Of a stretch of DNA of 64,000 bases, positions 17,008 through 51,033 are shown in pieces (within the stretch, counting starts at the first letter, position 1; the number at the start of each line of letters is the position of its first letter). The position numbers and the translations under genes are program-made. Source of the stretch: Formosa haliotis (GTDB lineage Bacteria > Bacteroidota > Bacteroidia > Flavobacteriales > Flavobacteriaceae); assembly GCF_001685485.1 (NCBI RefSeq), contig NZ_BDEL01000001.1:3035501-3099500 (forward strand). The letters run 5' to 3'. The notes under the pieces were generated by a model, which was not told the origin of the DNA, did not search any database, and was given only the letters and a program-made list of their open reading frames with translations.

Positions 17008-17900
17008 TTGGCTAGTACACAAACGTCCGTAAAGACACATTCCCTAATTTCAGATTTTAAAGAAATCACCAAGATGCGCTTATCTTTAAGTGTGGTGTTT
17101 TCTTCATTAGCCGGTTATTTATTGGGGGTAGATGTGGTAGATTTAAAAACATTGGTGCTTTTGGCCTTTGGAGGATACTTTATGGTAGGAGCATCGAATG
17201 CGTTTAATCAAATTATAGAAAAGGACCTCGATGCTTTAATGGATCGTACAAAAGATCGTCCGGTACCGGCAGGAAGAATGTCTGTTAATACAGCTTTTAT
17301 AATTGCATCTATATTCACCCTTCTAGGCGTTATCGTTTTATATGCTATAAACCCTAAAACAGCTATGTTTGGGGCTATTTCTATATTTATTTACACCTGC
17401 GTCTATACGCCTTTAAAAACCAAAACACCATTATCTGTTTTTGTAGGCGCTATTCCCGGAGCAATACCTTTCATGTTAGGATGGGTTGCAGCAACCAATA
17501 ATTTTGGAATTGAACCGGGGGTATTATTTATGTTGCAATTTTTCTGGCAATTCCCTCACTTTTGGGCTATTGGTTGGTTTTTATACGACGATTATAAGAA
17601 AGGTGGATTTTTTATGTTGCCAACCGGGAAACGAGACAAAGGGACTGCGGTACAAACCATAATGTATACCATTTGGACCATTATAATTTCTATTATCCCT
17701 GCTTTTGGCTTTACAGGTAAATTATTTTTAACGCCATTCGCTGCAGTTATTGTATTTTTGTTCGGATTGGTTATGCTTTACTATGCATTGCAGTTATTTA
17801 AAAAATGACGGCTGTTGCTGCAAAGCAATTAATGTTGGCGAGTGTTTCGTACATCACACTAATACAAATCATTTACGTATTAGATAAATTTTTAAGATAG
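17008..17900 (+). CDS. ctaB: Protohaem IX farnesyltransferase CtaB, with a frameshift near the 3' end
   Basis: CtaB (haem O synthase) attaches the farnesyl group to haem B for haem-copper oxidases. Multiple membrane helices and the prenyltransferase aspartate motif DLDALMDRTKDRP are present. As read, translation stops at 17806 after 266 residues. Adding one A to the A6 run at 17800-17805 restores the frame and adds a family-like last helix (QLMLASVSYITLIQIIYVLD) ending at TAG 17898-17900, giving 297 residues, normal for the family. The restored stop lies 1 bp before the next gene, as expected in an operon. The indel is therefore probably a sequencing error or a recent mutation. The start is a TTG; the promoter is at 16937-16967. 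Confidence 0.93.
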
Positions 17901-17901
17901 C

Positions 17902-18483
17902 ATGGATTTAACACAGGGTACTATAGAAGAAAAAACATACAGAGCTAAAAAAGTAATGCTTTGGTTTGGTATTATTTCTTTAATTATGTCGTTTGCAGGA
18001 TGGACAAGTGCGTTTATTGTTAGTAGTACACGCCCAGATTGGCTATCAGATTTTCAACTTCCAAATGCTTTTTTAGTTAGTACCATTTTAATTTTATTAA
18101 GTAGTGCCACCTTCTTTATGGCAAAACAAATGCTTAAAAAAGGGAATAGACAAGCTACAACGATACTCTTGTTGGTAACCTTAGGCCTAGGGATTGCATT
18201 TGTTGTTAACCAATTTGCAGGGTTCAGACAAATTATAGAAGCAGGTTACAATTTTACCGGTCCAACTAGTAATATTACAATGTCTTATGTGTATATTATT
18301 GCAGTAATGCATATTATTCACGTTATTGTGGGCTTAATTTGCCTTATAGTTGTAATTTATAATCATTTTAAACAAAAGTATAGTGCCTCGAAAATGCTTG
18401 GTTTTGAACTTGCAGCGACTTTCTGGCATTTCGTAGATTTTCTATGGGTTTACCTCTTTTTGTTTTTATATTTCTTTAAATAA
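17902..18483 (+). CDS. Cytochrome c oxidase subunit III-type protein (short form)
   Basis: A 193-residue, five-helix membrane protein of the haem-copper oxidase subunit III family. The pattern IIAVMHIIHVIVGL and the C-terminal FWHFVDFLWVYLFLFLYFFK are family hallmarks. Subunit III stabilises the catalytic core but carries no redox centre. It is followed by a second, longer subunit III gene. The catalytic subunits I and II are not in this window; in related genomes they often lie just upstream of ruvB. Confidence 0.88.
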   Translation: MDLTQGTIEEKTYRAKKVMLWFGIISLIMSFAGWTSAFIVSSTRPDWLSDFQLPNAFLVSTILILLSSATFFMAKQMLKKGNRQATTILLLVTLGLGIAFVVNQFAGFRQIIEAGYNFTGPTSNITMSYVYIIAVMHIIHVIVGLICLIVVIYNHFKQKYSASKMLGFELAATFWHFVDFLWVYLFLFLYFFK

Positions 18484-18493
18484 ATAATTTGTA

Positions 18494-18501
18494 TATTTTT
18501 G
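18494..18501 (+). promoter_or_regulatory. Possible -7 element TATTTTTG before the long subunit III gene
   Basis: TATTTTTG fits TANNTTTG and ends 26 bp before the ATG at 18528, in the only sizeable gap among the oxidase genes. No -33 TTTG is correctly spaced, so it may be an internal or spurious site. Confidence 0.3.
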
Positions 18502-18527
18502 ACTAACCATAAAACCAATTAATTAAT

Positions 18528-19508
18528 ATGAATACTACAGTTGTAAATACTGGAACCGAAGGTAAAACTTGGGGCGGTGGTAACGAACCACTTCGCGCAA
18601 GTTATGGTAAAATGATGATGTGGTTTTTCATCGTTTCCGATGCCTTAACTTTCTCTGGCTTTTTAGCAGCCTACGGATTTTCAAGATTTAAATTTATCGA
18701 TTCATGGCCTATAGCAGATGAGGTGTTTACACACGTTCCGTTTCTACATGGTCAGGATTTACCAATGATTTATGTTGCTTTCATGACGTTTATCTTAATT
18801 ATGTCGTCTGTTACTATGGTACTTGCCGTAGATGCAGGACATCATTTAAATAAACAAAAAGTAACGATTTACATGTTTTTAACCATTATAGGTGGTATCA
18901 TTTTCGTTGGATCTCAAGCTTGGGAATGGAAAACATTTATTACAGGTGAATATGGTGCTGTACAAACACGTTCTGGTAACTTACTTCAATTTGTAGATAC
19001 AGATGGTCATCGTGTAGCTATTAGCGATTTCGCTATACCAGCACACGGAGAACGTGTACAACATGAAAGAAATAAAGGACTTTGGTTTACAAATGAAGCA
19101 TCGCTTCCTCCATTTTCTGTAGATGAAGTTGTAAAAGGTTTAGAGGCTAACGAACATGTTTTAGTAAGAACAGAATTACTAAACGAAGAAGGTCAAAAAA
19201 CAGTATTATCAAGAGCAGAATCTTTAAGACAATTAAAATCTCACGGACAGCTAGTTGTTCAAGGTGCTAATCTTGAAGTAAACGAATATGGGAAACCTAT
19301 TTTTGCAGATTTCTTCTTCTTCATTACAGGATTCCACGGGTTTCACGTACTTTCTGGAGTGATCTTAAACATTATTATTTTCTTTAATGTTATTATTGGT
19401 ACTTACGAAAGACGTAGAAGTTACGAAATGGTTGAAAAGGTTGGTTTATACTGGCACTTTGTAGATTTAGTTTGGGTATTTGTATTTACATTCTTCTACC
19501 TAGTTTAA
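18528..19508 (+). CDS. Cytochrome c oxidase subunit III (long form with extramembrane insert)
   Basis: A 326-residue subunit III homologue. Membrane helices at about 25-130 are followed by a hydrophilic insert of roughly 110 residues (about 145-255, rich in Glu/Arg/His), then the conserved GFHGFHVLSG and a C-terminal YWHFVDLVWVFVFTFFYLV. The insert distinguishes it from the short paralogue directly upstream. The two probably occupy the same oxidase as N- and C-complementing parts or serve different complexes; the sequence does not decide this. Confidence 0.9.
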   Translation: MNTTVVNTGTEGKTWGGGNEPLRASYGKMMMWFFIVSDALTFSGFLAAYGFSRFKFIDSWPIADEVFTHVPFLHGQDLPMIYVAFMTFILIMSSVTMVLAVDAGHHLNKQKVTIYMFLTIIGGIIFVGSQAWEWKTFITGEYGAVQTRSGNLLQFVDTDGHRVAISDFAIPAHGERVQHERNKGLWFTNEASLPPFSVDEVVKGLEANEHVLVRTELLNEEGQKTVLSRAESLRQLKSHGQLVVQGANLEVNEYGKPIFADFFFFITGFHGFHVLSGVILNIIIFFNVIIGTYERRRSYEMVEKVGLYWHFVDLVWVFVFTFFYLV

Positions 19509-19533
19509 TTTTAAAATATAATCTTTTAGAAAA

Positions 19534-19914
19534 ATGGCACACGCACATAAATTAGAAATATTTAGAGGGGCAATTAAATTTAAATCGAATACAGATAAAA
19601 TCTGGGGTGTATTAATTTTATTGTCGGTAGTTACCGCTGTAGAAGTTGTTTTGGGTATTTACAAGCCTGAAATTCTTATGGGGCATATTTTTGGAATGAA
19701 AATTTTAAACTGGATTTTCATTATTTTAACCTTAGTTAAAGCCTATTATATTACATGGGACTTTATGCATATGCGAGATGAAACTCCAGGACTAAGACGT
19801 GCTGTAGTTTGGACGGCTATATTCTTAATCTGCTATTTAATGTTTATTTTATTAACTGAAGGTGGATATATAGAACATGTGTATTCTTCAGGATATATGA
19901 CTCACGATTTTTAA
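19534..19914 (+). CDS. Cytochrome c oxidase subunit IV (bacterial type)
   Basis: A 126-residue protein with three membrane helices (about 24-42, 50-68, 90-110) and the sequence KAYYITWDFMHMRDE, characteristic of small prokaryotic subunit IV proteins. It helps assemble the oxidase and binds no cofactor. It lies 25 bp after subunit III and is followed by a terminator-like hairpin that closes the oxidase transcript. Confidence 0.88.
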   Translation: MAHAHKLEIFRGAIKFKSNTDKIWGVLILLSVVTAVEVVLGIYKPEILMGHIFGMKILNWIFIILTLVKAYYITWDFMHMRDETPGLRRAVVWTAIFLICYLMFILLTEGGYIEHVYSSGYMTHDF

Positions 19915-19944
19915 AATACTTTAAGTGTTAAAAGATAGTATAAG

Positions 19945-19970
19945 GGCGGTTTATTAAACCGTCTTTTTTA
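19945..19970 (+). terminator. Rho-independent terminator after subunit IV
   Basis: GGCGGTTT (19945-19952) pairs with AAACCGTC (19956-19963, one G-U) around a 3-nt loop, followed by six T before an A at 19970. Confidence 0.75.
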
Positions 19971-20055
19971 TTTTTGCCCGAGATTTAAAACTGTCTTAAA
20001 TAGTTTTTGTCGGCATCAGAATAAAATGTCTAATGCCATTATTAAAGCCCAAATT

Positions 20056-20772
20056 ATGAACACGAAACAAATAAAAAGAAATGCGATATTAGGTATTTTG
20101 TTTTTTCTGCCTGTTACCTTTTTATTGTTTTTATATCCAGCAAAACACAATTACAATACTTTAGATGTGTTAACTAATGGAGTTCTCGATTTAAACGGGT
20201 TTTCTTCAGATGCCGATGCACCAATTCTTTTAGAAGATCATTTAACGGTTTTAGGATTCTTCGGAATGCATCCTATAGGAAAACATACTACGGCTTCAAA
20301 TCTTAAAGAACTCGTTTACGATAAATTTAAAGGATTTAAAAAATTTCAAATAGTTATAGTACTTCCTGAAGGCACCGAAGAAGAAGCCCGAACTTTAAAG
20401 GCAGAACTAATGAAATACGAAGAACTTAAATTCTGGCATTTTGTATATGGCTCGCCTAATAGTATTAAAGCCATTCACCAAAGCCTTAATGTACCCGATG
20501 CATTAGATGCCAATTTAGCCACAGACCATGTTTATATTATAGATAACGAGTTAAGTTTAAGAGGGCGTTTAGATGATAGAACAGATAACGAATTGGCAAG
20601 TAAAAAGCCAGTCTACCAAAAAGCGTCTTACGATGCGATTAAAGTAGCCGATTTAAAAAATAAAATGAGTGAAGATGTTAGAGTCTTGTTTACCGAATAT
20701 CGTCAAAAACGTAAAGGTAATTTCGATTCTACATCGCGCCGAGCAAACGATTTAAAAGGAACAGATGAGTAG
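20056..20772 (+). CDS. Membrane-anchored SCO-like protein lacking the copper-binding cysteines
   Basis: A 238-residue protein from ATG 20056; the frame also has an ATG at 20026, but 20056 gives a compact anchor (KRNAILGILFFLPVTFLLFL). After the helix comes a thioredoxin-like region (LEDHLTVLGFFGMHP ... FQIVIVLPEGTEEE ... DHVYIIDNELSLRGRLDD) that parallels the SCO protein encoded next, but the CxxxC position is occupied by non-cysteine residues. It overlaps the SCO gene by 8 bp. I infer a degenerate or accessory partner in CuA assembly; this is context-based and unproven. The family has no name I can give. Confidence 0.6.
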   Translation: MNTKQIKRNAILGILFFLPVTFLLFLYPAKHNYNTLDVLTNGVLDLNGFSSDADAPILLEDHLTVLGFFGMHPIGKHTTASNLKELVYDKFKGFKKFQIVIVLPEGTEEEARTLKAELMKYEELKFWHFVYGSPNSIKAIHQSLNVPDALDANLATDHVYIIDNELSLRGRLDDRTDNELASKKPVYQKASYDAIKVADLKNKMSEDVRVLFTEYRQKRKGNFDSTSRRANDLKGTDE

Positions 20773-21511
20773 TAAAACTAATTATTCGTATATAGGTATA
20801 GCCTTTATTATTTTAGTATTCGGAATTATTTTTATTCCGAAAATTGTCGACAGAATTAAAAATAACGATGTCTCGCGTAGCGATAGAATGAGTAATGTGC
20901 CCGATAATCATTATTCATCTAAAGAAAAATTAGCATTTTTAGAAATAAACGGTGAAGCAAAAAAAGTACCTGAATTTAGCTTTACTAATCAGGATGGAAA
21001 AACCATTACCAACACCGACTATCTAGGGAAAGTCTATGTGGTTGAATTTTTCTTTACTACATGCCCAACTATTTGCCCGATTATGAGCGAGAATTTAATT
21101 CAAATTCAAGATCGATTTAAATCTATAGACAATTTTGGGGTAGCGTCATTTACCATAAACCCAAGTCATGATACCCCAGAAGTTTTAAAAGAGTATGCCG
21201 AAAAATATGGGATCACCAATCCGAATTGGAATTTACTTACCGGAGATCGCGAAGCTATTTACAATTTAGCTAATCTTGGTTTTAATTTATATACTGCCGA
21301 AGAGGAGGGAGCTGCAGGTGGCTTCGAGCATTCTGGAAATTTCGCTTTAATAGATAAAAATGGATTTATAAGATCTAGAACAGATGCTTATGGGAATCCT
21401 AAAATATACTATAGAGGAACCATTACCGAAAAAGCAAAGTACGATGAAGATGGGGAAGAGGAAGAAATCACGATGCTTAAAGAAGATATTAAAAAGCTAT
21501 TAAATGAATAA
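20765..21511 (+). CDS. SCO1/SenC-type copper chaperone for cytochrome oxidase
   Basis: A 248-residue membrane-anchored thioredoxin-fold protein. The N-terminal helix is at about 8-25; the copper ligands are C100 and C104 in TTCPTICPIM, with the conserved histidine in GGFEHSGNFALIDKNG near residue 190. SCO proteins deliver copper to, or keep reduced, the CuA site of subunit II. Overlaps of 8 bp on both sides show tight coupling with the SCO-like gene and the DUF420 gene. Confidence 0.92.
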   Translation: MSSKTNYSYIGIAFIILVFGIIFIPKIVDRIKNNDVSRSDRMSNVPDNHYSSKEKLAFLEINGEAKKVPEFSFTNQDGKTITNTDYLGKVYVVEFFFTTCPTICPIMSENLIQIQDRFKSIDNFGVASFTINPSHDTPEVLKEYAEKYGITNPNWNLLTGDREAIYNLANLGFNLYTAEEEGAAGGFEHSGNFALIDKNGFIRSRTDAYGNPKIYYRGTITEKAKYDEDGEEEEITMLKEDIKKLLNE

Positions 21512-22052
21512 TTCAGAATACATTGTAGATTCTAAAAAGGCAGCAAAATATAATAAATGGATTATTGTTTTATCTGTTGTTATCCCTATTGCGGTGGCTG
21601 TTTTATTTGGTGTTAAAATTCCAAATGTAGAGCCTTTATGGTTTTTACCTCCAATTTATGCGAGTATAAACGCTATAACTGCCGTTGTTTTGGTGCTCGC
21701 CTTTCTGGCAATTAAAAAGAAAAATGTAAAAAAGCACGAGTTGTTAATTAAGGTAGCCATGACGTTATCTGTTATATTTTTAGTGTTGTACGTGGCATAC
21801 CATATGACTAGCGATTCTACAAAATTTGGTGGTGAAGGGGCTATAAAATATGTGTACTACTTTATTTTATTTACTCATATAGTGCTATCTATAGTTGTTA
21901 TTCCGTTTGTGCTAATTACGTATGTACGCGGTATTACAAACGATATTGCCCGACATAGAAAAATTGCAAAAATTACGTTTCCACTGTGGTTATATGTAGC
22001 CGTAACAGGAGTGTTGGTTTATGCTTTAATATCACCTTATTATACATTTTAA
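21504..22052 (+). CDS. DUF420 family membrane protein
   Basis: A 182-residue protein with five predicted helices (about 18-38, 48-68, 82-100, 118-140, 155-178). The motif YVAYHMTSDSTKFGG and the helix VYYFILFTHIVLSIVVIPFV resemble DUF420 proteins, which regularly accompany SCO and oxidase genes. Conserved histidines in membrane helices hint at haem or copper binding, but the role is unknown. It shares its last base with the next ATG. Confidence 0.85.
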   Translation: MNNSEYIVDSKKAAKYNKWIIVLSVVIPIAVAVLFGVKIPNVEPLWFLPPIYASINAITAVVLVLAFLAIKKKNVKKHELLIKVAMTLSVIFLVLYVAYHMTSDSTKFGGEGAIKYVYYFILFTHIVLSIVVIPFVLITYVRGITNDIARHRKIAKITFPLWLYVAVTGVLVYALISPYYTF

Positions 22053-22273
22053 TGAAAAAACGCTATATCATTTTAATGGTTTTCATTTTGGCGGTCTCAC
22101 TTTCTGCAGAGGCCCAATGTGCCATGTGTAGAGCTGTCTTAGAAACTGAAGAGGGTCAAGGTACAGCAAAAGGAATAAATGATGGTATAGTGTATTTAAT
22201 GGCTATTCCGTACATATTGGTAGGGGGAATTAGTTATGTAATGTATATGAAATTCTTCAGAACAAAAAAATAA
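22052..22273 (+). CDS. Small CxxC membrane protein in the cytochrome oxidase cluster
   Basis: A 73-residue protein; the ATG at 22052 overlaps the preceding stop (TAATG), which decides the start. The signal peptide MKKRYIILMVFILAVSLSAEA is followed at once by QCAMCRA, so a CxxC pair sits at the mature N-terminus; one helix (about 46-66) and a Lys/Arg tail complete it. The layout implies a periplasmic CxxC tethered to the inner membrane. I infer a copper or thiol role in oxidase assembly from context only. It ends the cluster; 130 bp without another gene follow. Confidence 0.7.
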   Translation: MKKRYIILMVFILAVSLSAEAQCAMCRAVLETEEGQGTAKGINDGIVYLMAIPYILVGGISYVMYMKFFRTKK

Positions 22274-22403
22274 TTCACTTTAGGGTGTAACAATTTTCCA
22301 GATTAGCAGTCTAATTAATGATTGTATATACAAAAGTCTTAACACTTTTTTAGTATACAATAATTTGGGTTTTGTTTAACATTGCACCTCTAAGCTAGCT
22401 AAT

Positions 22404-23105
22404 ATGATTGAAATTAAAGATTTACATAAATCTTACCATATGGGAAGTAACACACTTCACGTTTTAAAAGGTATAGATTTTAGTGTTAAAGAAGGCGAAT
22501 TGGTTTCTATAATGGGGTCTTCAGGATCTGGTAAATCTACACTACTTAATATCTTAGGAATGCTAGACGAAGCCGATTCTGGTAGTTATACACTAGATGG
22601 TTTTCCTATTAAAAATTTAAACGAAAAGATTGCGGCGAACTACCGTAATAAATTTCTTGGTTTTATATTCCAATCCTTTAATCTTATCAATTATAAATCT
22701 GCTCTAGATAATGTTGCTATGCCTTTATATTATCAAGGTATGAAACGTAAAGAGCGTATAGATAAAGCAGCACATTATTTAGAAAAAGTAGGCTTGGCAG
22801 ATTGGTCTCATCACTTACCAAACGAAATGTCTGGAGGTCAAAAACAACGTGTGGCGATAGCTCGAGCTTTGGCAAGCGATCCGAAAGTACTTTTAGCCGA
22901 TGAGCCAACGGGAGCTTTAGATACAAAAACATCTTACGAGGTTATGGACCTTATTCAGGGGATTAACGAGGAAGGAAAAACCATTCTTATTGTAACTCAC
23001 GAGCCCGATATTGCACAAATGACGAAGCGTATTGTGAATTTAAAAGATGGCTTAATTATAAATGACACCAAAGTAGAACAAGTTAGAGCTTTAGCAAATG
23101 TTTGA
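22404..23105 (+). CDS. ABC transporter ATPase, MacB/LolD type
   Basis: A 233-residue nucleotide-binding subunit with Walker A GSSGSGKST, signature MSGGQKQRVAIARAL, Walker B VLLADEPTGALD and H-loop VTHE. It belongs to the MacB/LolD group, which powers mechanotransmission exporters and does not move substrates through a channel of its own. It overlaps the first permease by 8 bp and begins a six-gene exporter operon running to 29.5 kb. Confidence 0.93.
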   Translation: MIEIKDLHKSYHMGSNTLHVLKGIDFSVKEGELVSIMGSSGSGKSTLLNILGMLDEADSGSYTLDGFPIKNLNEKIAANYRNKFLGFIFQSFNLINYKSALDNVAMPLYYQGMKRKERIDKAAHYLEKVGLADWSHHLPNEMSGGQKQRVAIARALASDPKVLLADEPTGALDTKTSYEVMDLIQGINEEGKTILIVTHEPDIAQMTKRIVNLKDGLIINDTKVEQVRALANV

Positions 23106-24342: not shown

Positions 24343-24343
24343 T

Positions 24344-36963: not shown

Positions 36964-39558
36964 TTAAAATTGTTGTCCAATAATAAAGTGTGTTTCCCAT
37001 CCGTTAGGTGTATTTTGACCAGGAAGCGGATCGAAACCGTAACCAAAATCTATTCCTAATAATCCAAATGCAGGCATAAATACACGTAATCCAGCACCAG
37101 CAGATCGTTTTAATTGGAATGGGTTATAATCTCTAAACGTGTTGAAAGCAGCACCTCCTTCTACAAACGTAAGGGCATATATTTTAGCTGAAGCCGCTAA
37201 GGTAATTGGGTAACGTAATTCTAAAGAGAATTTGTTATAAATCGCGGCACCATCGTTGGTTGTATTTCCATTTCTATCTACAGGTTGTATAGATTGATTA
37301 GGATAACCACGTAAGGCAACAGCTTCTCTACCATCTAAACTAAAGCTACCTAAACCATCACCTCCTAAAAAGAAACGTTCGAAAGGAATTACTCCTCTAG
37401 ATTGATTGTAGGCGCCTAAATATCCAAACTCTACATTTGGTTTTAAAACTAATTTACCAATGATACTCGTATACCATTCTCCTTTAAATTTAATTTTATA
37501 AAATTCTAACCAATTAAAACGTTCTTGGTCAATTTCTCCCATACGTGCGTAAGCATCATTTCTAGCCGCTGCAGAAGCATCTGGGTCATTATAAATTAAT
37601 TCTTCTTCTGCACGCTCCACTTCTAGTGCTTCGTAATCTACATTGTTAAATAGCGAGTACGGTAAAGATAACTTAGCACTTACACTAAAGTTAGATCCTC
37701 CAAGCGGGAAAATTGGATCGTTCCAGGTATTGTTTCTTGTTAAGCCTATTGTGTAAGCTAAACTGTTAGAGTACCCATCGGAAAACGTAAATAATCCGGT
37801 GCTATAGTTTTTTAGATTATAGTGTTGGTAACTTACGGCTTGAGATAGGGTGAAATAATCATCTGGTACCGATAATCGTTTTGCTAAACCAACCGTAACT
37901 CCCGTAATATTGAAACGTTTGTCTTTATCTGCTTGTCCCGTAGATGAGTCGTATAAAAACTGATTAGAGTGCGAGATAGAAGTAGAAAATTGTACTGGTT
38001 TTTTACCTCCTAACCATGGTTCTGAGAACGAGAAACTATACGTTCTGTAGAACTGACTGGCTTGTAAACGAAGCGCTAATTGTTGACCATCTCCCATTGG
38101 AACGGGCTTATAAGCGTCTTTATTAAAAATATTTTTTAATGAAAAGTTGTTAAATGAAAGCCCTAAGGTCCCAATGAAACCACCTCCACCGTAACCACCT
38201 TGTAGCTCGATTTGGCTAGATCCTGTTTCTTCAACCTTATACTCCATGTCTACCGTTCCTTCATTAGGATTTACGTTTTTAAAGTCGGGTGTTAATGTTT
38301 CAGCATCAAAGAAGCCTAACTGACTTAATTCACGAACCGTTCTAACCACGTTGGCTTTACTGTATAATTCTCCTGGACGCGTACGGATTTCGCGATAAAT
38401 AACATGGTCGTTTGTTTTTTCGTTACCTACTACAGTAACATTGTTGAAGTAGGCCGGTTTACCTTCAGAAATTCTAATTTCCATATCGATAACCTGTCCG
38501 TCGGCATTAGTTTCTACAGGGTTAATTGTAGAGAATAAATACCCGTTATTTTGGTATAAGTTGGTAATGTCATTTCCATCTGGTTTAGTATCGTCTGCAA
38601 TTCCTTTTGCCAATAGTACCCCGTTATATGTATCGCCTTTTCTAACTCTTAAAATGGCATTTAAATACTGGTCTGTATATACTGTGTTTCCTATAAAATT
38701 AATGTCTCCGAAAATATATTTTTTACCTTCTTCAACTTTTAAATTAATAGAAATAGATTCGTCTTTATTAACAAATATGCTATCTGAAACGATACGAGCA
38801 TCTCTATATCCGTTTTCTTTATAGGTGTCTATAACACTTACTAAATCCGCTTTATAGTCCTCTTCAATAAATTTTGAACGTTTCCAAACACGATAGAATT
38901 GCTTTTTCTTGGTGTTTTTCATACTAGCCTGCAACTTTTTGTCGCTAAGCACTGTATTGCCAATAAAGTTAATATCTTTAATTTTTACTTTTGGTCCTTT
39001 GTCTATGGCAACAACCATGTTTACTCGAGGTTTTTCTATAGAATCTACAATAGGAATAACGTTTATGTTAACTTTTGCAGAGTAAAACCCATCCTTCGAG
39101 TATTTGTTTTCTAGGTAATTTTTGGTAGTAGTAATTAGGTTTTCGGTTACTTTAACCCCCTCGTTAAGGTTGTTTTCAGTAATAATTTCTTCCATCTTAC
39201 TTTTCTTGATTCCCGTTATTTTTACATCGCGTAATTCTGGTAAATCGTACAAGTGTATTTCTAAACTTGCGACATTATCGTGTACGTCTTTAATGTAAAT
39301 TTCGATATCGCTAAAAAGGCCAGATTTCCAAAGTTTTTTAATTGCTCCGCTTATTTCTTCGCCCGGAATTAAAAGTTCTTCACCTTTTCTAAGCCCGGAA
39401 TAGGTTACAATAGTTTGTTCGCTAAAGCTAGAATTTCCTGATACTGTGATTTCTGAAATGGTATATTTTTTACCTTGTATCCCCGGTGCTTGGGCATTAA
39501 CTATAGCAGAAGTTAACGAAAAAAGTAAGATAAAAATAAAAGGTAAATATGTTTTCAA
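36964..39558 (-). CDS. bamA: Outer-membrane assembly factor BamA
   Basis: BamA is the essential Omp85 insertase. From TTG 39558 (GTG 39585 is an alternative) it has 864 residues: signal peptide (FIFILLFSLTSAIVNAQ), POTRA repeats over about 30-440 and a 16-strand barrel with the Omp85 motif ALRGYP near the C-terminus. The frame is continuous with uppS only because of a one-base deletion in that gene; a cytoplasmic UppS domain before the signal peptide would be incompatible with export. Its neighbours uppS, the two ompH genes and the DUF6089 barrel form the usual flavobacterial cluster. Confidence 0.93.
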   Translation of the reverse strand: MKTYLPFIFILLFSLTSAIVNAQAPGIQGKKYTISEITVSGNSSFSEQTIVTYSGLRKGEELLIPGEEISGAIKKLWKSGLFSDIEIYIKDVHDNVASLEIHLYDLPELRDVKITGIKKSKMEEIITENNLNEGVKVTENLITTTKNYLENKYSKDGFYSAKVNINVIPIVDSIEKPRVNMVVAIDKGPKVKIKDINFIGNTVLSDKKLQASMKNTKKKQFYRVWKRSKFIEEDYKADLVSVIDTYKENGYRDARIVSDSIFVNKDESISINLKVEEGKKYIFGDINFIGNTVYTDQYLNAILRVRKGDTYNGVLLAKGIADDTKPDGNDITNLYQNNGYLFSTINPVETNADGQVIDMEIRISEGKPAYFNNVTVVGNEKTNDHVIYREIRTRPGELYSKANVVRTVRELSQLGFFDAETLTPDFKNVNPNEGTVDMEYKVEETGSSQIELQGGYGGGGFIGTLGLSFNNFSLKNIFNKDAYKPVPMGDGQQLALRLQASQFYRTYSFSFSEPWLGGKKPVQFSTSISHSNQFLYDSSTGQADKDKRFNITGVTVGLAKRLSVPDDYFTLSQAVSYQHYNLKNYSTGLFTFSDGYSNSLAYTIGLTRNNTWNDPIFPLGGSNFSVSAKLSLPYSLFNNVDYEALEVERAEEELIYNDPDASAAARNDAYARMGEIDQERFNWLEFYKIKFKGEWYTSIIGKLVLKPNVEFGYLGAYNQSRGVIPFERFFLGGDGLGSFSLDGREAVALRGYPNQSIQPVDRNGNTTNDGAAIYNKFSLELRYPITLAASAKIYALTFVEGGAAFNTFRDYNPFQLKRSAGAGLRVFMPAFGLLGIDFGYGFDPLPGQNTPNGWETHFIIGQQF

Positions 39559-39568
39559 TGATAATGAA

Positions 39569-40302
39569 TTAGCTAAGTTGTTCACTTGTTTTTCCAAAAC
39601 GGCGTTCTCTTTTTGATAGTCAATAATAGCATCATACAAATGTTGCTTGGTAAAGTCAGGCCAAAGTACATCTGTAAAATATAATTCGGCATAGGCTATT
39701 TGCCAAAGTAAAAAATTGCTTATGCGTTTTTCGCCGCTAGTGCGTATAAGCAAGTCTACGTCTGGTAAATTTTGCGTGTAAAGATGCTTATTTATAACTG
39801 ATTCGTCAATACTTTCTGAAGAAATTATATTATTTTTAACTTTATTACTAATTTCTTTAACCGCCTGAATGAGTTCTTCCTGCGAACCGTAGCTTAAGGC
39901 CAGGGTGAGTGTCATTCTAGTATTGTTTTCAGTTTTAGTAATAACCTCTTGTAATTCCTTAAACACTTTTTTAGGTAAAGTAGATAAATTACCTATAGCA
40001 TTTAACTTTATATTGTTGTCTTGAAGTGTTTTAATTTCTTTTCGTAGCGAGCTTACTAGAAGCTTCATTAGAGTGTCTACTTCAAGCTTTGGGCGGTTCC
40101 AGTTCTCTGTAGAGAAGGCGTAAAGAGTAAGGTTTTCTACTCCTAGTTCGGCGCAGGATTCTACAGTTGTTCTTACAGATTTTGTTCCATTTTCATGACC
40201 GATAGCACGAAGTAAACCTTTTTGTTTAGCCCAGCGCCCGTTACCATCCATAATTATGGCGATATGCTTAGGTAATCTTTTTATGTCGATGTTGTCGTTC
40301 AA
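39569..40302 (-). CDS. uppS: Undecaprenyl diphosphate synthase UppS, with a frameshift near the 3' end
   Basis: UppS (cis-isoprenyltransferase) makes the C55 lipid carrier for peptidoglycan. Motifs are complete: IIMDGNGRWAKQKG with the catalytic aspartate, AFSTENWNRP, DLLIRTSGEKRISNFLLWQ and ELYFTD. As read, the frame shifts at a T5 run (39610-39614; A5 on the coding strand) and runs into bamA. One extra A gives the usual ending YQKRERRFGKTSEQL and a stop at 39569-39571, for 244 residues, the normal length. Sequencing error is the likeliest cause; a real mutation in an essential gene is less plausible. It starts 9 bp after the DUF6089 gene. Confidence 0.92.
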
Positions 40303-40311: not shown

Positions 40312-41013
40312 TTAATTAATGCAATAACATGGATTTCTTCCAAAGGTATAAGTTAAGGTAATCCCGGTAAATACATACCAATCGTTATTGTTTATATTTC
40401 CGTAACGGTGATCTTCAGTAATTTCTCCATCTACTTTAACCGTGTAATCGCTACCATCTATATTGTCAGAAAAAGTGTAACGTGCAGCTACTTCTGCTCC
40501 AAGGATTAAGGAATGAGATATCCGGAACTTATAACCAAAAGCCATTGGAATACCAAGTATCCAACTTTCAGAATCATCAGAAACTAGCCTACTAGATTCA
40601 TAGTGGAAATCGCGAGTTAAACCAGCCGATACTCCTAAAAATAAATAAGGTGTATGAACACGATCTGATTTGTTTAAATCGAATTCAAAAAAATTAAATT
40701 CCAGACCTGCCGAAGCCTCTGCAATACGGTTTTTTGTAACTTTATAACCTCTTTGTTCTCTACTCGGGTCATCAGATTTAGTATCGTCGAAAACTAAATT
40801 TGAAATCATACCCGTAGCTCTCCATGTTACTCTAGGGGTTCTATTCCATTTATACACTCCACCAACGGCAAGTTTAGACGGATTAATAAATACAGTACTA
40901 CCAGCGTCGCCAATAAAGTTACTACCTCCTAAAAACACACCAATTTCATGGTTTTGGGCATAACTATGTTGTAGACAAAAAATTGAAATAATAAGTACGA
41001 TTAGATACCTCAT
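40312..41013 (-). CDS. DUF6089 family outer-membrane beta-barrel
   Basis: A 233-residue protein with signal peptide (YLIVLIISIFCLQHSYAQ) and a small barrel built from strands such as HEIGVFLGGSNFIGDAG and a C-terminal FTGITLTYTFGRNPCYC. The family is conserved beside nadK, uppS and bamA in Flavobacteriia; function unknown. It is first after a good promoter and probably leads the uppS-bamA-ompH transcript. Two cysteines at the very C-terminus may form a disulfide. Confidence 0.82.
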   Translation of the reverse strand: MRYLIVLIISIFCLQHSYAQNHEIGVFLGGSNFIGDAGSTVFINPSKLAVGGVYKWNRTPRVTWRATGMISNLVFDDTKSDDPSREQRGYKVTKNRIAEASAGLEFNFFEFDLNKSDRVHTPYLFLGVSAGLTRDFHYESSRLVSDDSESWILGIPMAFGYKFRISHSLILGAEVAARYTFSDNIDGSDYTVKVDGEITEDHRYGNINNNDWYVFTGITLTYTFGRNPCYCIN

Positions 41014-41997: not shown

Positions 41998-41999
41998 GC

Positions 42000-43464: not shown

Positions 43465-43487
43465 AGCGATTAATTAAATAAAAAGTA

Positions 43488-44252: not shown

Positions 44253-44292
44253 AAGTTTATCTTTACTAGAACTAAATTTTAACTACTTCTAA

Positions 44293-45351
44293 ATGAAACG
44301 CTTTGTATTATATCTGTTTGTTTTGTTTGCTATAAATATTTTTGCACAGAACAAGCATGAAGATGGTCCTTTTAAAGAATATTACAAAAATGGAACGTTA
44401 AAAGCAGAAGGCACCTATAAATCAGATAAGAAGATAGGACGATGGCAGTATTATTACGATAATGGTCAAATCGAAAAAGAGGATATGTTTTTACCTAATG
44501 GAAGTTGGTCTGGATTGAGCCGAACGTATACCCAAGCAGGTGTTTTAAAAAGTGAAACTAAAACTGATCCTGCAGAACACGGAAGTTATATTGAAAAGGA
44601 GTTTTTTGGCGACGGAAGTGTTCATCGAGAATTTATATTGAAATCTGTTGAAGGCAAAAATTATCAAACCAGAAAAGGACCTTATAAGGAGTATTATGCC
44701 AATGGTAATATTAAGGTTGAATGTATGTTAGATCAAGGAAATGTAGTTGGTGTGTGGAAACAGTATTATCCTACCACAGAATTAGAGTGGGAAGTTAATT
44801 ATACAAATGGTTATAAACAAGGAAGCTATAAACAGTACTATACTGATGGAACCGTTCAAATTGAAGGGACTACTGATTTAGATTTGAAAGATGGAGAGGA
44901 ACAAAGGTTTGATACTGAAGGGAAGAGTGTTCAGAAATTAAAATATAAAAAAGGGGTGCTTAAAAATAGCTCAAAAAATGCCGATGCAATTATCGCTAAT
45001 ATTCCTGATGGCGTATTAGAAAAAGTGCCTGTGTATCCAGGTTGCGAAACGGTATTGGGGAATATGGCTAGGAGAAAATGTATGTCTTTAGAAATTTCTA
45101 AATTTGTAGCAGGAAAATTTAATACCACTTTTGCAGGAGATACTAATTTAAAGGGTGTTCAGAAAATTTATGTCATTTTTAAGATCAATGAAACAGGTAA
45201 TGTTGTAGATATCCGGTCTCGAGCAGAGCATAAAGCATTTGAGGCTGAAGCAATTCGTGTATTAGCTTTATTACCAAAAATGAAACCAGGTTATGTTTAT
45301 GGAAAGCCGGTAGAAGTGCCGTATAGCCTGCCAATAGTTTTTAAAATATAA
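44293..45351 (+). CDS. Secreted YwqK/MORN-like repeat protein with TonB C-terminal domain
   Basis: A 352-residue protein with signal peptide (FVLYLFVLFAINIFAQ), then several YwqK/MORN-like repeats over about 20-215 (GPFKEYYKNGTLKAEGTY, GPYKEYYANGNIKVEC, GSYKQYYTDGTVQIEG) and a C-terminal TonB-like domain from about 243 (VPVYPGCE) to VPYSLPIVFKI. That domain is strikingly similar to the one in the TonB protein at 14 kb, including the Cys pair. There is no membrane anchor or proline spacer, so it is unlikely to be a working energy transducer; a periplasmic or outer-membrane interaction role is inferred. Confidence 0.8.
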   Translation: MKRFVLYLFVLFAINIFAQNKHEDGPFKEYYKNGTLKAEGTYKSDKKIGRWQYYYDNGQIEKEDMFLPNGSWSGLSRTYTQAGVLKSETKTDPAEHGSYIEKEFFGDGSVHREFILKSVEGKNYQTRKGPYKEYYANGNIKVECMLDQGNVVGVWKQYYPTTELEWEVNYTNGYKQGSYKQYYTDGTVQIEGTTDLDLKDGEEQRFDTEGKSVQKLKYKKGVLKNSSKNADAIIANIPDGVLEKVPVYPGCETVLGNMARRKCMSLEISKFVAGKFNTTFAGDTNLKGVQKIYVIFKINETGNVVDIRSRAEHKAFEAEAIRVLALLPKMKPGYVYGKPVEVPYSLPIVFKI

Positions 45352-45383
45352 TTTTAATACATCTTAAAATATAGAGTTAGAGT

Positions 45384-45731
45384 ATGAAACAAATCATTAA
45401 ATTTTTATTAAACGCCTTATTGGTAGTTTTACTGGCTAATTTTTTTTCAGGAATACATGTCGATGGGTTTATGACAGGGTTGCTTGTTGTACTAGTATTA
45501 GCCATTTTAGATTTTTTAGTAAAGCCTATTTTAAAAATATTAACGTTTCCCATTACCGTGGTAACTTTCGGGTTATTTCTGTTTGTTATTAATGGGTTAA
45601 TTATATTATTGGCGAGTAAATTGGTAAGCGGTTTTCATGTCGATTCTATTTGGTCTGGTATCCTGTTTAGTATTTTATTGGCCATACTTCAATCTGTAAT
45701 AGCCGGTCTTATAGGAGACGATAAAAAATAG
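45384..45731 (+). CDS. Small four-helix membrane protein, phage-holin family IV-like
   Basis: A 115-residue protein with four predicted helices (about 5-22, 30-48, 55-78, 88-110) and the sequence LDFLVKPILKILTFPITVVTFGLFLFVINGL, family hallmarks here spanning two helices. Despite the name, members occur widely on bacterial chromosomes without prophage genes, as here, and no lysis genes are nearby. Function unknown. Confidence 0.82.
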   Translation: MKQIIKFLLNALLVVLLANFFSGIHVDGFMTGLLVVLVLAILDFLVKPILKILTFPITVVTFGLFLFVINGLIILLASKLVSGFHVDSIWSGILFSILLAILQSVIAGLIGDDKK

Positions 45732-45755
45732 TCTGAAATACAAGACGTTAAAAAC

Positions 45756-45786
45756 TTTGTAGGGTTGTAAAAATGTTTTATTTTTG
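45756..45786 (+). promoter_or_regulatory. Promoter of tig-clpP-clpX (TTTG-N19-TATTTTTG)
   Basis: TTTG at 45756-45759 and TATTTTTG at 45779-45786, spaced by 19 bp. The tig ATG at 45892 leaves a leader of about 100 nt, unusually long compared with the other promoters here. Confidence 0.75.
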
Positions 45787-45891
45787 CAGCCCGTTTTTAA
45801 TTAGAAAAATCAAGGAGAATCTGTAAGTTTTACACTAAAAAACACAGAAACTTTATGTTAAATGCCCAAGCTGGGTTTTATATCATTTAAA

Positions 45892-47220
45892 ATGAATATT
45901 ACAAGAGAGAACATCGATGCATTAAATGCTGTAGTAAAAGTTGATATCGCTAAAGAAGATTATAGTGATAAAGTAGAAAAAATCTTATCAGATTATCGCA
46001 AAACAGCTAACATTCCTGGATTTAGAAAAGGGCATGTGCCAATGGGAATGGTAAAAAAACAGTACGGTAAAGCAGTTTTAGTAGATGAGGTAAATAAATT
46101 ACTTCAAGACGCATTAAACAAATATTTAACCGAAGAAAAATTAGATGTTTTAGGTCAGCCACTTCCTAAAGCTCAAGATGCTATAGATTGGGATTCTGAT
46201 GCATTTTCATTCGAATTTGAATTAGGTTTAACTCCAGAATTCGATGTAGAATTAAAAGGTAAAAAAGCAATTACACAATACAATATTGTTGCCGATGATA
46301 AAATGATCGACGAACAAATTGAGCGCATCCAAAAACAATACGGAAAATTAGTATCTCAAGATATTGTAGAAGAAGACAGTGAAATTACTGGAACTTTTAA
46401 AAACGAAGAGAAGGAAATTGAAAACACCATTACGTTAACTTTAGATAAATTAAAAGGAAAAGCAAATCCAAAGAAATTTATTGGAGCTAAAGTTGGAGAT
46501 GTAATAAAACTTAAAACAAAAGGTTTATATAGCGACGATCATGATTTAATGCATGCATTAAAAGTATCTCACGACGAGGTTCATGGTTTAGAAATTGAAG
46601 TAACATTTACAATTACAGAAATTAACAAGCGTGAACTTGCAGAATTAGACCAAGAGTTATTCGATAAGTTATTTGGAGAAGGTACTGTAAAAACGGTAAC
46701 AGAATTAAAAGAAAAGATTAAAGAAGATACAGAAAAGCAATTCGTGCAACAAGCAGATCAAAAGCTTTTAAATGATGTTACAGAATATTTAGTAGATAAC
46801 ACTAAGTTCGATTTACCAGCAGAATTCTTACAAAAATGGATTCAAGCTGCTGGCGAAACACCTTTAGATGATGCAGCTGCTAAAGAAGAGTACGAAAAGT
46901 CTGAAAAAAGCATGCGTTACCAATTAATCGAAGGGAAATTAATTACAGCTAACGACATCCAAGTATCAATGGATGATATTAAAGATCATGCTAAAAACAT
47001 GATTAAAGCTCAAATGGCACAATTCGGTCAATTAAATCCTTCAGATGAAGAATTAGAAGGTATTGCTGCACGTGTTTTAGGAAACCAAGAAGAAGCACGT
47101 CGTATTTCTGAGCAAATCATTAGCCAGAAATTATTAGAACTTTACAAAGAAAAAGCGAATTTAAAAGTTAAAGAAGTGACTTACGAAAACTTTGTTAAAG
47201 AGGTTTACGGCGATAAATAA
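45892..47220 (+). CDS. tig: Trigger factor (ribosome-associated chaperone)
   Basis: Trigger factor binds the ribosome exit tunnel and shields nascent chains. The ATG at 45892 gives 442 residues beginning MNITRENIDALNAVVKV; an ATG-free extension upstream is unlikely. The ribosome-binding motif appears as PGFRKGHVPMGMVKKQYG, followed by a divergent peptidyl-prolyl isomerase region and a helical C-terminal domain. It heads the tig-clpP-clpX set, coupling folding with proteolysis. Confidence 0.93.
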   Translation: MNITRENIDALNAVVKVDIAKEDYSDKVEKILSDYRKTANIPGFRKGHVPMGMVKKQYGKAVLVDEVNKLLQDALNKYLTEEKLDVLGQPLPKAQDAIDWDSDAFSFEFELGLTPEFDVELKGKKAITQYNIVADDKMIDEQIERIQKQYGKLVSQDIVEEDSEITGTFKNEEKEIENTITLTLDKLKGKANPKKFIGAKVGDVIKLKTKGLYSDDHDLMHALKVSHDEVHGLEIEVTFTITEINKRELAELDQELFDKLFGEGTVKTVTELKEKIKEDTEKQFVQQADQKLLNDVTEYLVDNTKFDLPAEFLQKWIQAAGETPLDDAAAKEEYEKSEKSMRYQLIEGKLITANDIQVSMDDIKDHAKNMIKAQMAQFGQLNPSDEELEGIAARVLGNQEEARRISEQIISQKLLELYKEKANLKVKEVTYENFVKEVYGDK

Positions 47221-47251
47221 GTCAACTGTTTAAAAGAATAATCATTATATT

Positions 47252-47283
47252 TAGGCGTTGAATAGATTTTTATTCATCGCCTA
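47252..47283 (+). other. Hairpin between tig and clpP
   Basis: A 13-bp stem with one mismatch (47252-47264 with 47271-47283) around the 6-nt loop GATTTT. Only a weak T-rich stretch follows, so it is more likely an attenuator or mRNA-stability element than a full terminator. It lies 30 bp before the clpP start. Confidence 0.55.
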
Positions 47284-47312
47284 ATTTGTTTTCAATTAAA
47301 TTAAGATACACT

Positions 47313-47987
47313 ATGGATTACGGAAAAGAATTCGAAAAATTTGCTATAAAAGATCAAGGGATTAACAGCATGTACTACAATAAAATTATTAGTAGTATGT
47401 ACCCAACAAATTTAACCCCAAATATTATTGAAGAACGCCAAATGAACATCGCTATTTTCGATGTGTTTTCGCGTTTAATGATGGATCGTATTATATTTTT
47501 AGGAACAGGGATTAACGACCAAGTGGCTAATATAATTCAGGCACAATTATTGTTCTTAGAGAGTACAGATGCTTCAAAAGACATCCAAATTTACATTAAC
47601 TCTCCAGGAGGAAGTGTATATGCAGGTCTTGGTATTTACGATACCATGCAATTTATTAAGCCAGATGTAGCAACTATTTGTACAGGTATGGCAGCCTCTA
47701 TGGGAGCTGTATTATTATGTGCAGGAGCTAAAGGAAAACGTAGCGGTTTAACACATTCTCGTGTTATGATTCACCAGCCATTAGGTGGAGCACAAGGACA
47801 AGCAAGTGATATTGAAATTACTGCACGTGAAATTTTAATATTAAAAGAAGAGCTTTACAAAATTATTAGTAAGCATTCTGGGCAAGACTACGACAAAGTA
47901 TACGCAGATAGTGATCGTGATTACTGGATGAAAGCAGATAAAGCTAAAGAATACGGAATGATTGATGAAATATTAGTTAGAAGCTAA
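47313..47987 (+). CDS. clpP: ATP-dependent Clp protease proteolytic subunit
   Basis: ClpP forms the 14-mer serine protease chamber. From ATG 47313 it has 224 residues, with catalytic S129 ([11 protein letters not shown]), H154 (VMIHQPLGG) and D203 (SDRDYWM). The frame is open for nine more codons upstream to a TTG, but the ATG gives the family-typical [11 protein letters not shown] start. clpX follows 60 bp later, giving the usual tig-clpP-clpX order. Confidence 0.96.
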
Positions 47988-48047
47988 TACCAATCAAAAC
48001 AAATAATAGCATGTTGTTATTATTTTAAGTGAAATTTAAAAAGATTT

Positions 48048-49280
48048 ATGGCAAAGGAAGAATTAGAATGTTCGTTTTGTGGAAGAAAAAAGCCTGATAC
48101 CAATTTATTAATTGCAGGTTTAGATGCGCATATTTGCGACCGTTGTATCGAACAAGCACATGGAATAGTTGTAGAGGAATCTAAACAGTCGGGTAATAGT
48201 GAATTGTCTGACGAATTAATGCTGCGTAAACCACTTCAAATTAAACAATTTTTAGATGAGTACATTATTGGTCAGGATATGACTAAAAAAGTAATGTCTG
48301 TAGCAGTATATAATCACTATAAACGTTTGTTACAATCGCCATCTAAAGATGATATTGAAATTCAAAAAAGTAATATCATGATGGTTGGACAAACGGGTAC
48401 TGGTAAAACCTTAATGGCGAAAACCATAGCTAAAATGTTAAACGTACCGTTAGCTATTGTAGACGCTACTGTTTTAACAGAAGCAGGTTACGTAGGAGAA
48501 GATGTTGAAAGTATTTTAACACGTTTGTTACAAGCAGCCGATTACAATTTAGAAAAAGCTGAAAGAGGTATCGTATTTATAGACGAGATTGATAAAATAG
48601 CGCGTAAGAGCGATAACCCATCTATTACTCGAGATGTTTCGGGAGAAGGTGTTCAGCAAGCCTTATTAAAACTTTTAGAAGGTACCGTAGTTAACGTACC
48701 GCCAAAAGGAGGTAGAAAGCATCCAGACCAGAAGTTTATAGAAGTAAATACCGAAAACATCTTATTTATTGCAGGTGGAGCTTTTGATGGTATTGAACGT
48801 CATATTTCTAAACGTTTAAATATGCAAGCGGTAGGGTATAGTGCTTCAAAATCAGACGAGGTTATCGATCAAAATCATTTGTTGCAATATATCATTCCTA
48901 AAGATTTAAAAGATTTCGGATTAATTCCTGAAATTATCGGACGTTTACCGGTGTTAACCTATATGGATCCTCTTGATGCTAAAACGTTAAGAGCGATTCT
49001 TACTCAGCCTAAAAATGCTATTATTAAGCAATATGAAAAATTATTCGAAATGGATGATATCGATTTTCATATTACAGATGGGGCGCTAGATTTTATAGTA
49101 GAAAAAGCTATAGAATATAAGTTAGGAGCTCGTGGGTTACGTTCGTTATGCGAAGAGATCTTAACCGATGCCATGTTTGAACTTCCAAGTTCTGAAAGCA
49201 AAGAGCTTAAGGTTACAAAAACTTATGCCGAAAATAAATTGAATAAAACAATCATTAAAAAACTGAAAGCTGTTTCTTAA
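48048..49280 (+). CDS. clpX: ClpX unfoldase
   Basis: AAA+ unfoldase that feeds substrates to ClpP. The 410 residues have the N-terminal zinc-binding domain ([10 protein letters not shown] ... [11 protein letters not shown]), Walker [10 protein letters not shown], Walker [11 protein letters not shown], the pore-loop region and the ClpP-contact IGF-type position ([13 protein letters not shown] region upstream of the small domain). Complete, and followed by a strong palindromic terminator. Confidence 0.97.
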
Positions 49281-49304
49281 ACAGTTTACTTTATTTTATA
49301 AGCT

Positions 49305-49334
49305 AAAAAAACCACTCAATTGAGTGGTTTTTTT
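49305..49334. terminator. Terminator after clpX, usable from both sides
   Basis: A 14-bp perfect inverted repeat (49305-49318 with 49321-49334) with an A-run on the left and a T-run on the right. It ends clpX and can also stop the convergent gh3 transcript. The rest of the 49281-49516 gap shows nothing recognisable. Confidence 0.88.
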
Positions 49335-49516
49335 ATTTTGGTTGCTATGAAATAACATTGCAACATACTGTGTTTAAACAGATTTAGATTAATAGCACAC
49401 TAAAAGTATAGGGATTCCAACTAAATTAAAAGTAATATTTAATATTTTAGTTATATGTATTCTAATTAACGATAAACAGACAAATAACCTGTATTTGGGT
49501 GTTGAAATTCAATAGG

Positions 49517-51033
49517 TTAATTGTTGTTTAATGTTAGTAGTTCATCCATATATTGTCTAGAGTTAGACAGTCTAGGTATTTTATGTTGGCCACCCAATTT
49601 ATTATTTTGTTTTAGCCAATCGTAGAAAAGGTTAGCGCGTGCAATATGAATGGTTGGTTTGTTAAGCGTAATATTATTGTACCGTTTTGCTTCGTAATCA
49701 GAATTTAATGCTTTTAGAGCGTTATCAAATAGTTCGTTAAAATAGTTTATGTCTGCTGGCGCTTTTTAAATTCAATAATCCATTCATGGGCACCTTTTTC
49801 TTTATCCTTCATAAAAATAGGAGCGGCTGTAAAGTCTACAATTTCGGCTTTGGTACGTTTGCATACTTTTTTAAGCGCATCTTCAGCATTTTCAATAATT
49901 AATTCTTCACCAAATACATTAATATGGTGTTTAGTACGGCCGGAAACCTTAATTCGGTAAGGCGATATAGATGTAAATCTAACTGTATCTCCAATTTTAT
50001 AACGCCAAAGCCCCGCATTGGTGGTAATTACCATCGCGTAGTTTTTTTTAAGTTCAACTTCACTTAAAGGAATAATTTTTTGGCCTAAAGTGTTATAAGT
50101 ATCCATAGGTATAAACTCATAAAAGATACCGTAATCTAACATAAGTAAAAGCTCTTTGGAGTCGTTATGATCTTGAATAGCAAAAAAACCTTCAGATGCA
50201 TTATAAATTTCGTAATATTTAAATTTATTGTTGGGTAATATGTTTTTGTATTGATCGGCATAAGGTGTAAAGCTCACTCCGCCATGAAAATAAACTTCTA
50301 TATTAGGCCAAACTTCAAATATGTCTTTTTTGCCTGTGCTTTCTAAAACATTATTTAGTAGAACCAGCATCCAAGAAGGAACACCAGCTAAACTAGTTAC
50401 GTTTTCCAGAATGGTTTCGTCAACAATGGCTTGCATTTTTCTTTCCCAATCGCTCATTAAAGACACCTTATTGCTTGGCGTGCTGCTAAATTCTGCCCAT
50501 AGTGGCATATTGTCTATCAGTATGGCCGACAAGTCGCCGAACACCGTTCCGTTTTCTTTATAAAGCTCTTTACTTCCTCCTAAGCGTAAACTCTTTCCTG
50601 TAAAAAGTTGCGAATCTTCGTTATTGTTTAGGTACATGCATAATAAATCTTTGCTTGCCGCATAATGACAATCTTCAAGCGATTCTGAACTCACGGGAAT
50701 AAATTTACTTTTAGCATTTGTAGTTCCGCTAGATTTAGCAAACCATTTTATATGCGATGGCCAAAACACATTTTGCTCGCCAAGACGAGAACGTTCTATT
50801 AAATCTTGATAATCTTCGTAAGTCGAAACAGGGACACGTTCTGCAAATGTTTTATAATTTTTTATAGAACTAAACTCGTGTTTACGTCCAATTTGAGTGT
50901 CTTTGGCGGTTTGAATTAAATGTAATAATAATTCGTATTGTACCTCGTTTGGGTATTTTAGAAATAATTCAATTTGATGAAAACGCTTTTTCAGAAACCA
51001 AGAGGCAATTGAATTTACTAAAGGAATTGACAT
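49517..51033 (-). CDS. GH3-family acyl-adenylating enzyme, with a frameshift near the 3' end
   Basis: GH3-type proteins are ANL-fold adenylating enzymes; plant members conjugate auxin or jasmonate to amino acids, while bacterial substrates are unknown. Visible are AKSSGTTNAKSKFIPVS (nucleotide loop), NASEGFFAIQD and TTNAGLWRYKIGDTVRFT. As read, it stops at 49747 after 428 residues. Adding one A to the A5 run (T5 at 49763-49767 on the plus strand) restores EFKKAPADINYFNELFDNAL and a further 78 residues to a stop at 49517-49519, giving 505 residues, normal for the family. It is convergent with clpX and divergent from the DUF2797 gene. Confidence 0.88.

What the first reader, a model, noticed from the sequence alone, without database searches (positions are those of the whole stretch)
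17008..51033. Three one-base deletions, all in short A-runs, break ctaB, uppS and gh3
ctaB (A6 at 17800-17805), uppS (T5 at 39610-39614, minus-strand gene) and gh3 (T5 at 49763-49767, minus-strand gene) each recover a full, family-like C-terminus if one A is added on the coding strand. Restored lengths (297, 244 and 505 residues) match the families. The same error type three times in about 32 kb, including in an essential gene, points to homopolymer undercalling in the assembly. If instead they are real, the organism carries three simultaneous lesions affecting oxidase maturation and lipid-carrier synthesis.
Basis: partly seen in the sequence, partly recalled or inferred. Interest (0 to 1): 0.75.

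Follow-up and report, generated by a model that had tools for sequence, protein, structure and literature searches.

The report
Sequencing errors in a seaweed bacterium
Three genes that look broken in this marine bacterium's genome are almost certainly intact in the living cell, and the apparent breaks are single missing letters left by a long-read-only sequencing project, so this is an ordinary artefact but a useful warning about that public genome.

Summary
At the three sites the run is one base shorter than in the same-genus orthologues compared, and a conserved tail follows in another frame. The contig length, 4,305,801 bases, equals that of Formosa haliotis MA1, announced as a PacBio RS2-only assembly (PMC5114390); a later table gives it the lowest CheckM completeness of eight Formosa genomes (PMC12943765).

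The signature goes beyond the window. In 800 kb compared with two Formosa relatives, 16 isolated one-base shifts are supported by both; all 16 are losses, hitting among others single-copy uppS and hemB. By the same criterion each relative has one. The window's three fit the wider rate (1.9 expected). Protein identity beyond the shifts (88%) is no lower than before them (85%). MutS and MutL frames are open.

One addition: the uppS shift does not end the frame but joins UppS to BamA in a spurious 1,112-residue ORF. Verdict: assembly artefact. No reads were seen.

The parts
17008..17808 (+). ctaB (heme o synthase / protoheme IX farnesyltransferase), 5' part in frame, 266 aa as read
   Evidence: TIGR01473 233 bits, above its cut-off of 210; the other 119 listed homologues are 296-316 aa
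17800..17805 (+). A6 run at which the ctaB frame shifts; the tail to about 17900 is conserved in another frame
   Evidence: 32 of 32 aligned residues identical to G001 beyond the shift; purine run one shorter than in 4 of 4 relatives read
36964..40302 (-). spurious 1,112-aa ORF joining uppS in frame to bamA
   Evidence: Pfam Prenyltransf 17-233, POTRA, Omp85; relatives' UppS frames end at 233-284 aa; among the best 120 listed of 2810 database hits none covers more than 80% of it
39610..39614 (-). run of five A (coding strand) at which the uppS frame shifts, just before a conserved C-terminal RERRFG/YG stretch
   Evidence: run of 6 in 5 of 5 same-genus genomes; the stretch is in 29 of 29 relatives examined and absent from the frame here
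49747..51033 (-). GH3-family gene, 428 aa as read
   Evidence: Pfam GH3, GH3_M and the first 43 of 119 positions of GH3_C; the other 119 listed homologues are 476-512 aa
49763..49767 (-). run of five A (coding strand) at which the gh3 frame shifts
   Evidence: 68 of 91 aligned residues identical to G004 beyond the shift; purine run one shorter than in 5 of 5 relatives
56795..59416 (+). mutS, intact, 873 aa (bears on the mutator rival)
   Evidence: TIGR01070 907 bits, above its cut-off of 642; five MutS Pfam domains

Best explanation
The three breaks are residual one-base losses in short homopolymers in a PacBio RS2-only, single-contig assembly of Formosa haliotis MA1. The genes ctaB, uppS and gh3 are very probably intact in the organism. 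They are 3 of 16 such losses with two-reference support in 800 kb; scaling to the whole coding sequence gives something on the order of 140. Shown: the shifts, their one direction, their link to runs, their spread over 800 kb, the conservation of the tails, the match of the record's exact length to a published assembly, and that assembly's method. Inferred: that the true molecules carry the longer runs.
For: Exact length match, 4,305,801 bases in one contig, to the F. haliotis MA1 announcement: Pac Bio RS2, SMRT Analysis 2.3, no other reads mentioned (PMC5114390, whole text). A later paper lists this assembly (BDEL01) with 95.07% CheckM against 99.01-100% for seven others; by my arithmetic on its Table 1, 3711 genes minus 3542 protein-coding minus 58 rRNA/tRNA leaves 111, against 0-36 in the other seven (PMC12943765). 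16 two-reference sites in this genome, all losses, against 1 in each of the two relatives by the same criterion (read off). 15 of 16 leave a run of 4 or more. Identity beyond the shifts 3511/3977 (88%) against 2890/3385 (85%) before them. uppS and hemB have one family match each in the genome and are hit. A published error profile of a long-read assembly matches: mostly false deletions, most often after runs of four to five (PMC12007338, passages); residual homopolymer errors are usual in long-read-only bacterial assemblies (PMC8812927, abstract and passages).
Against: No reads were seen. Long A/T runs are not scarcer here than in G001 (runs of 7, 8, 9: 575, 157, 30 here; 700, 204, 40 in G004; 523, 138, 24 in G001), so there is no general shortening. 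The session's own completeness figure for this genome is 100%, unlike 95.07% in the paper. Depth is unclear: the later table says 25x, but the announcement's 173,359 reads of 4,030 bases on average come to roughly 160x raw, at which depth errors should be rarer. A few of the 16 sites cannot be placed in a run with certainty (for example 2970330 and 3273315). Eleven further single-reference sites in this genome are mixed: 4 losses of one, 5 gains of one, 2 gains of two.
Confidence: 0.95

Rival explanations
1. The losses are real and recent: the sequenced culture was a mutator lineage that gained many one-base slips in runs.
For: Losses sit in runs, as replication slippage would place them; no decay beyond the shifts would also fit very recent events.
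Against: MutS is above its NCBIfam cut-off and 873 aa long, and the MutL_C match lies in an open frame of 620 aa; other repair genes were not tested. All 16 two-reference sites are losses and none is a gain; slippage without repair is expected to give both signs (recalled). Single-copy uppS and hemB would be damaged; UppS is expected to be essential (family knowledge). The assembly is long-read only.
Confidence: 0.03
2. The runs are real and RNA polymerase or the ribosome slips there, so full-length proteins are made from shifted genes.
For: Such rescue is known: an 11-A run in tssM1 of Citrobacter rodentium (PMC4256274, passages).
Against: Runs at the three sites are 5-6 long, not 11. None of the same-genus genomes read shares the shortened run. 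Sixteen unrelated genes are involved. I did not search for stimulatory signals.
Confidence: 0.01
3. uppS is truly fused to bamA in this species and works as a two-domain protein.
For: The ORF is continuous over 1,112 residues, with a Prenyltransf match over residues 17-233 and POTRA/Omp85 after it.
Against: The join replaces the conserved C-terminal RERRFG/YG stretch found in 29 of 29 relatives examined. In the human cis-prenyltransferase a C-terminal RxG motif reaches into the active site (PMC7573591, passages); that the bacterial stretch is its equivalent is my reading. A signal-peptide-like start of BamA would sit mid-protein (read by eye, no predictor run). None of the best 120 listed hits covers more than 80%. 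The bases after the run still spell the relatives' uppS end in the other frame.
Confidence: 0.01

Closest known systems
Residual homopolymer deletions in long-read-only bacterial assemblies (as described for Kastor, PMC12007338, and Polypolish, PMC8812927; passages seen)
   Same: One-base false deletions, mostly after short runs, spread over the sequence and breaking genes; a single contig without short-read polishing.
   Different: The rate here is low (16 two-reference sites in 432,294 comparable coding bases), and I have not seen the reads.
Transcriptional slippage rescue of an interrupted gene (tssM1 of C. rodentium, PMC4256274; passages seen)
   Same: A run of A precedes a frame change and the tail is conserved.
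   Different: That run is 11 long and slippage there was shown; here the three runs are 5-6 long, many genes are hit, and same-genus relatives do not share the state.

Membership tests
Long-read homopolymer deletion artefact | Assembly built from long reads without short-read polishing | tested here: met
   Exact length match to an assembly announced as PacBio RS2-only; no short reads are mentioned there
Long-read homopolymer deletion artefact | Excess of losses over gains | tested here: met
   16 of 16 two-reference sites are losses; the 11 single-reference sites are mixed, 4 losses and 7 gains
Long-read homopolymer deletion artefact | Losses lie in homopolymers | tested here: met
   15 of 16 leave a run of at least 4; about 5% of coding bases lie in runs of 5 or more; aligner placement may favour runs
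Long-read homopolymer deletion artefact | Spread over the genome, not confined to one locus | tested here: met
   16 sites over 2.51-3.29 Mb; 1.9 expected in the window, 3 seen, P 0.26; 800 kb of 4.3 Mb examined
Long-read homopolymer deletion artefact | Accurate reads show a longer run | not testable with these tools
   No reads on hand
Pseudogenes by real mutation | Relaxed constraint beyond the lesion | tested here: not met
   Identity 88% beyond against 85% before, summed over 16 sites; a very recent event would not show it
Mismatch-repair-deficient mutator | Loss of mutS or mutL | tested here: not met
   Open frames of 880 and 620 aa, stop to stop; MutS above its NCBIfam cut-off. Other repair genes not tested
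Programmed frameshift or slippage gene | Shifted state conserved in relatives | tested here: not met
   Open frame of the best match long enough to pass the site in 37 of 37, 32 of 32 and 36 of 36 relatives with matches, one gh3 with an internal TAA; run lengths read base by base only in the five same-genus genomes

The most novel reading that the evidence does not exclude
Some of the losses are real, so that the sequenced culture of F. haliotis carries a UppS-BamA fused protein and altered CtaB and GH3, the cell coping by slippage or belonging to a slippage-prone lineage.
Probability: 0.03. Interest if true: 0.6.

Novelty: not a real feature. Interest (0 to 1): 0.08.

Why it matters
The biology is ordinary, but the record is a type-strain genome used in comparative work. 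Its genes are partly split or falsely joined. One paper reports the largest number of singleton gene clusters (755) for F. haliotis among the Formosa genomes compared (PMC12943765, passage); part of that may stem from such errors (inference). Anyone reading enzyme loss, gene fusion or pseudogenes from this assembly should polish it first.

Tried and rejected
Same-species intact copy: the best protein hits other than the window's own are 87% (UppS-BamA ORF), 89% (GH3) and 91% (CtaB) identical, from other Formosa or unnamed sources, so no near-identical intact copy appears in those listings. General shortening of long homopolymers: not seen. Local cluster in the window: no (P 0.26). Mutator rival: MutS and MutL only. 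True UppS-BamA fusion: rejected. The preliminary alignment gave many paired noise gaps and was replaced by the stricter. Rows dropped before the 16: 11 of 27 site clusters in this genome had one reference only. For the two relatives I read the one-site figure off by eye, keeping sites where both references agree in sign and which lie at least 45 bases from both ends of the ORF used. That drops one site of 22 clusters in G004 and two of 21 in G001 that lie about 30 bases from an ORF start, and one in G004 where the references disagree; most other clusters there are the G000 sites seen from the other side or single-reference. By the same criterion all 16 stay in G000. The G001 stretch holds three very long single-letter runs, presumably masked letters, that distort its run statistics; I did not use those figures. 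A further same-genus genome (G003) that I wanted as arbiter was not obtained as a long stretch. In the protein family searches the orthologues of G004 or G001 were used for the sites outside the window, two of them only in part (173 and 60 residues).

Full report
What was claimed.

The observation. Beyond each run the sequence goes on to spell a conserved tail in another frame. Same-genus genomes have the longer run: uppS in 5 of 5, gh3 in 5 of 5, ctaB in the 4 of 5 that the search pattern caught. In wider relatives the open frame of the best match is long enough to pass the site in 37 of 37 (uppS), 32 of 32 (ctaB) and 36 of 36 (gh3, one with an internal TAA) genomes that had a match among 38 relatives searched. 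The listed family lengths fit: CtaB 297 aa and GH3 505-512 aa in Formosa. The junction falls just before a stretch that reads RERRFG, in one genome RERRYG, in 29 of 29 relatives examined, of 37 with a match. In the human cis-prenyltransferase a C-terminal RxG motif takes part in the active site (PMC7573591, passages); that the bacterial stretch is its equivalent is my reading. A real lesion here should therefore disable a gene with a single family match in the genome (PF01255).

Which genome it is. The window lies in a single contig of 4,305,801 bases, and the close named protein hits are Formosa. The announcement of Formosa haliotis MA1, which I read whole, reports 4,305,801 bp in one contig, Pac Bio RS2 reads only, SMRT Analysis 2.3 (PMC5114390). 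Table 1 of a later paper lists the assembly (BDEL01) at 25x with CheckM completeness 95.07%, the lowest of eight (PMC12943765, section 25 part 1 and passages). The announcement's read count and mean length come to roughly 160x raw by my arithmetic, so the depth behind the consensus is unclear. Again by arithmetic on that table, genes minus protein-coding minus rRNA and tRNA leaves 111 in F. haliotis and 0-36 in the other seven, which points to many pseudogene calls. The session's own completeness figure is 100%. The relatives G004 and G001 have contig lengths that the protein listing ties to F. sediminum and F. agariphila.

Is it wider than the window? I took 800 kb of this genome around the window and about the corresponding 800 kb of G004 and G001, aligned each ORF of 60 aa or more with its best counterpart at 65% protein identity or more, and kept isolated shifts of one or two bases with flanks at least 70% identical. 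In this genome 27 site clusters appeared: 16 supported by both references and 11 by one. All 16 are one-base losses. The 11 are mixed: four losses of one, five gains of one, two gains of two. Keeping only sites where both references agree and which lie at least 45 bases from both ORF ends, all 16 stay here and one remains in each relative (read off). With gains and losses equally likely, 16 of 16 has a chance of about 0.000015.

Run context. 15 of the 16 leave a run of at least four equal letters at the placed gap, while about 5% of coding bases lie in runs of five or more. The binomial value, 8e-19 at 5.2%, is only indicative because the aligner may drift into runs. Long runs are not scarcer here than in G001, so the losses are sporadic rather than a general shortening. 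A published profile of one long-read assembly also finds mostly false deletions, most often after four to five equal letters (PMC12007338, passages).

What is hit. Besides the three window genes, judged on the relatives' orthologues: a Mn/Fe superoxide dismutase, a FabH-type ketoacyl-ACP synthase, an acylglycerol-phosphate acyltransferase, a CNNM/CBS protein near GldE but below its cut-off, porphobilinogen synthase HemB, an AraC-type regulator, an HTTM/carboxylase-like protein, a MetX-aspartate kinase-homoserine dehydrogenase fusion, an argininosuccinate synthase-type protein (Pfam domains met, just under the NCBIfam cut-offs), a DUF6909 protein, one protein with weak PurF similarity (first 173 residues searched) and two without a family (one searched with its first 60 residues only). 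HemB has one match in the genome and is shifted at about codon 30; a downstream start could spare most of it. Cytochrome oxidase subunit III genes beside ctaB suggest that heme is needed. Loss of UppS should be lethal (family knowledge).

No decay. Summed over the 16 sites, 2890 of 3385 aligned residues (85%) match before the shift and 3511 of 3977 (88%) after it.

Local or general. The rate is 16 in 432,294 coding bases comparable with both references; the window should hold 1.9 and holds 3 (P 0.26). The window is not special. Scaling to an assumed 3.8 Mb of coding sequence gives about 140, of the same order as the 111 above.

Rivals. A mutator: MutS and MutL frames are open and gains are absent from the two-reference set. 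Slippage rescue: the known case seen here has 11 A (PMC4256274, passages); the three runs are 5-6 long, and the same-genus relatives read do not share the state. A true UppS-BamA protein: none of the best 120 listed of 2810 hits covers more than 80% of it.

Verdict. What remains is to see the reads.

Noticed in passing
window 36964-40302: The uppS shift creates a continuous UppS-BamA ORF; automatic annotation could report a false gene fusion here. The database entry from this contig starts downstream (877 aa).
   Followed up: yes
window 49747-51033: The GH3-family gene is nearest to NCBIfam OlsH (lyso-ornithine lipid synthetase) but far below its cut-off even in the G004 counterpart with an open frame (412 of 620 bits), so its substrate is open; two more GH3 matches lie elsewhere in the genome.
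   Followed up: partly
G000:C1 around 3291606; counterpart L218:16385-19786: G004 has a 1,133-aa protein joining a MetX-like acyltransferase, an aspartate kinase and a homoserine dehydrogenase; the G000 copy carries one of the 16 shifts.
   Followed up: no
G004:C1:804256 (L235) and L268 about 19867 (G001): Each relative also shows one isolated one-base loss against the other two genomes, perhaps a real lesion or an error.
   Followed up: no
G036, L090: The best gh3 match in this order-level relative has an internal TAA.
   Followed up: no
window 40312-41010 (-) and 5897-13099 (+): Upstream of uppS lies porG of the type IX secretion system (NF052316, 237 bits over a cut-off of 130); a 2,400-aa SprA-type gene lies at 5897-13099.
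   Followed up: no
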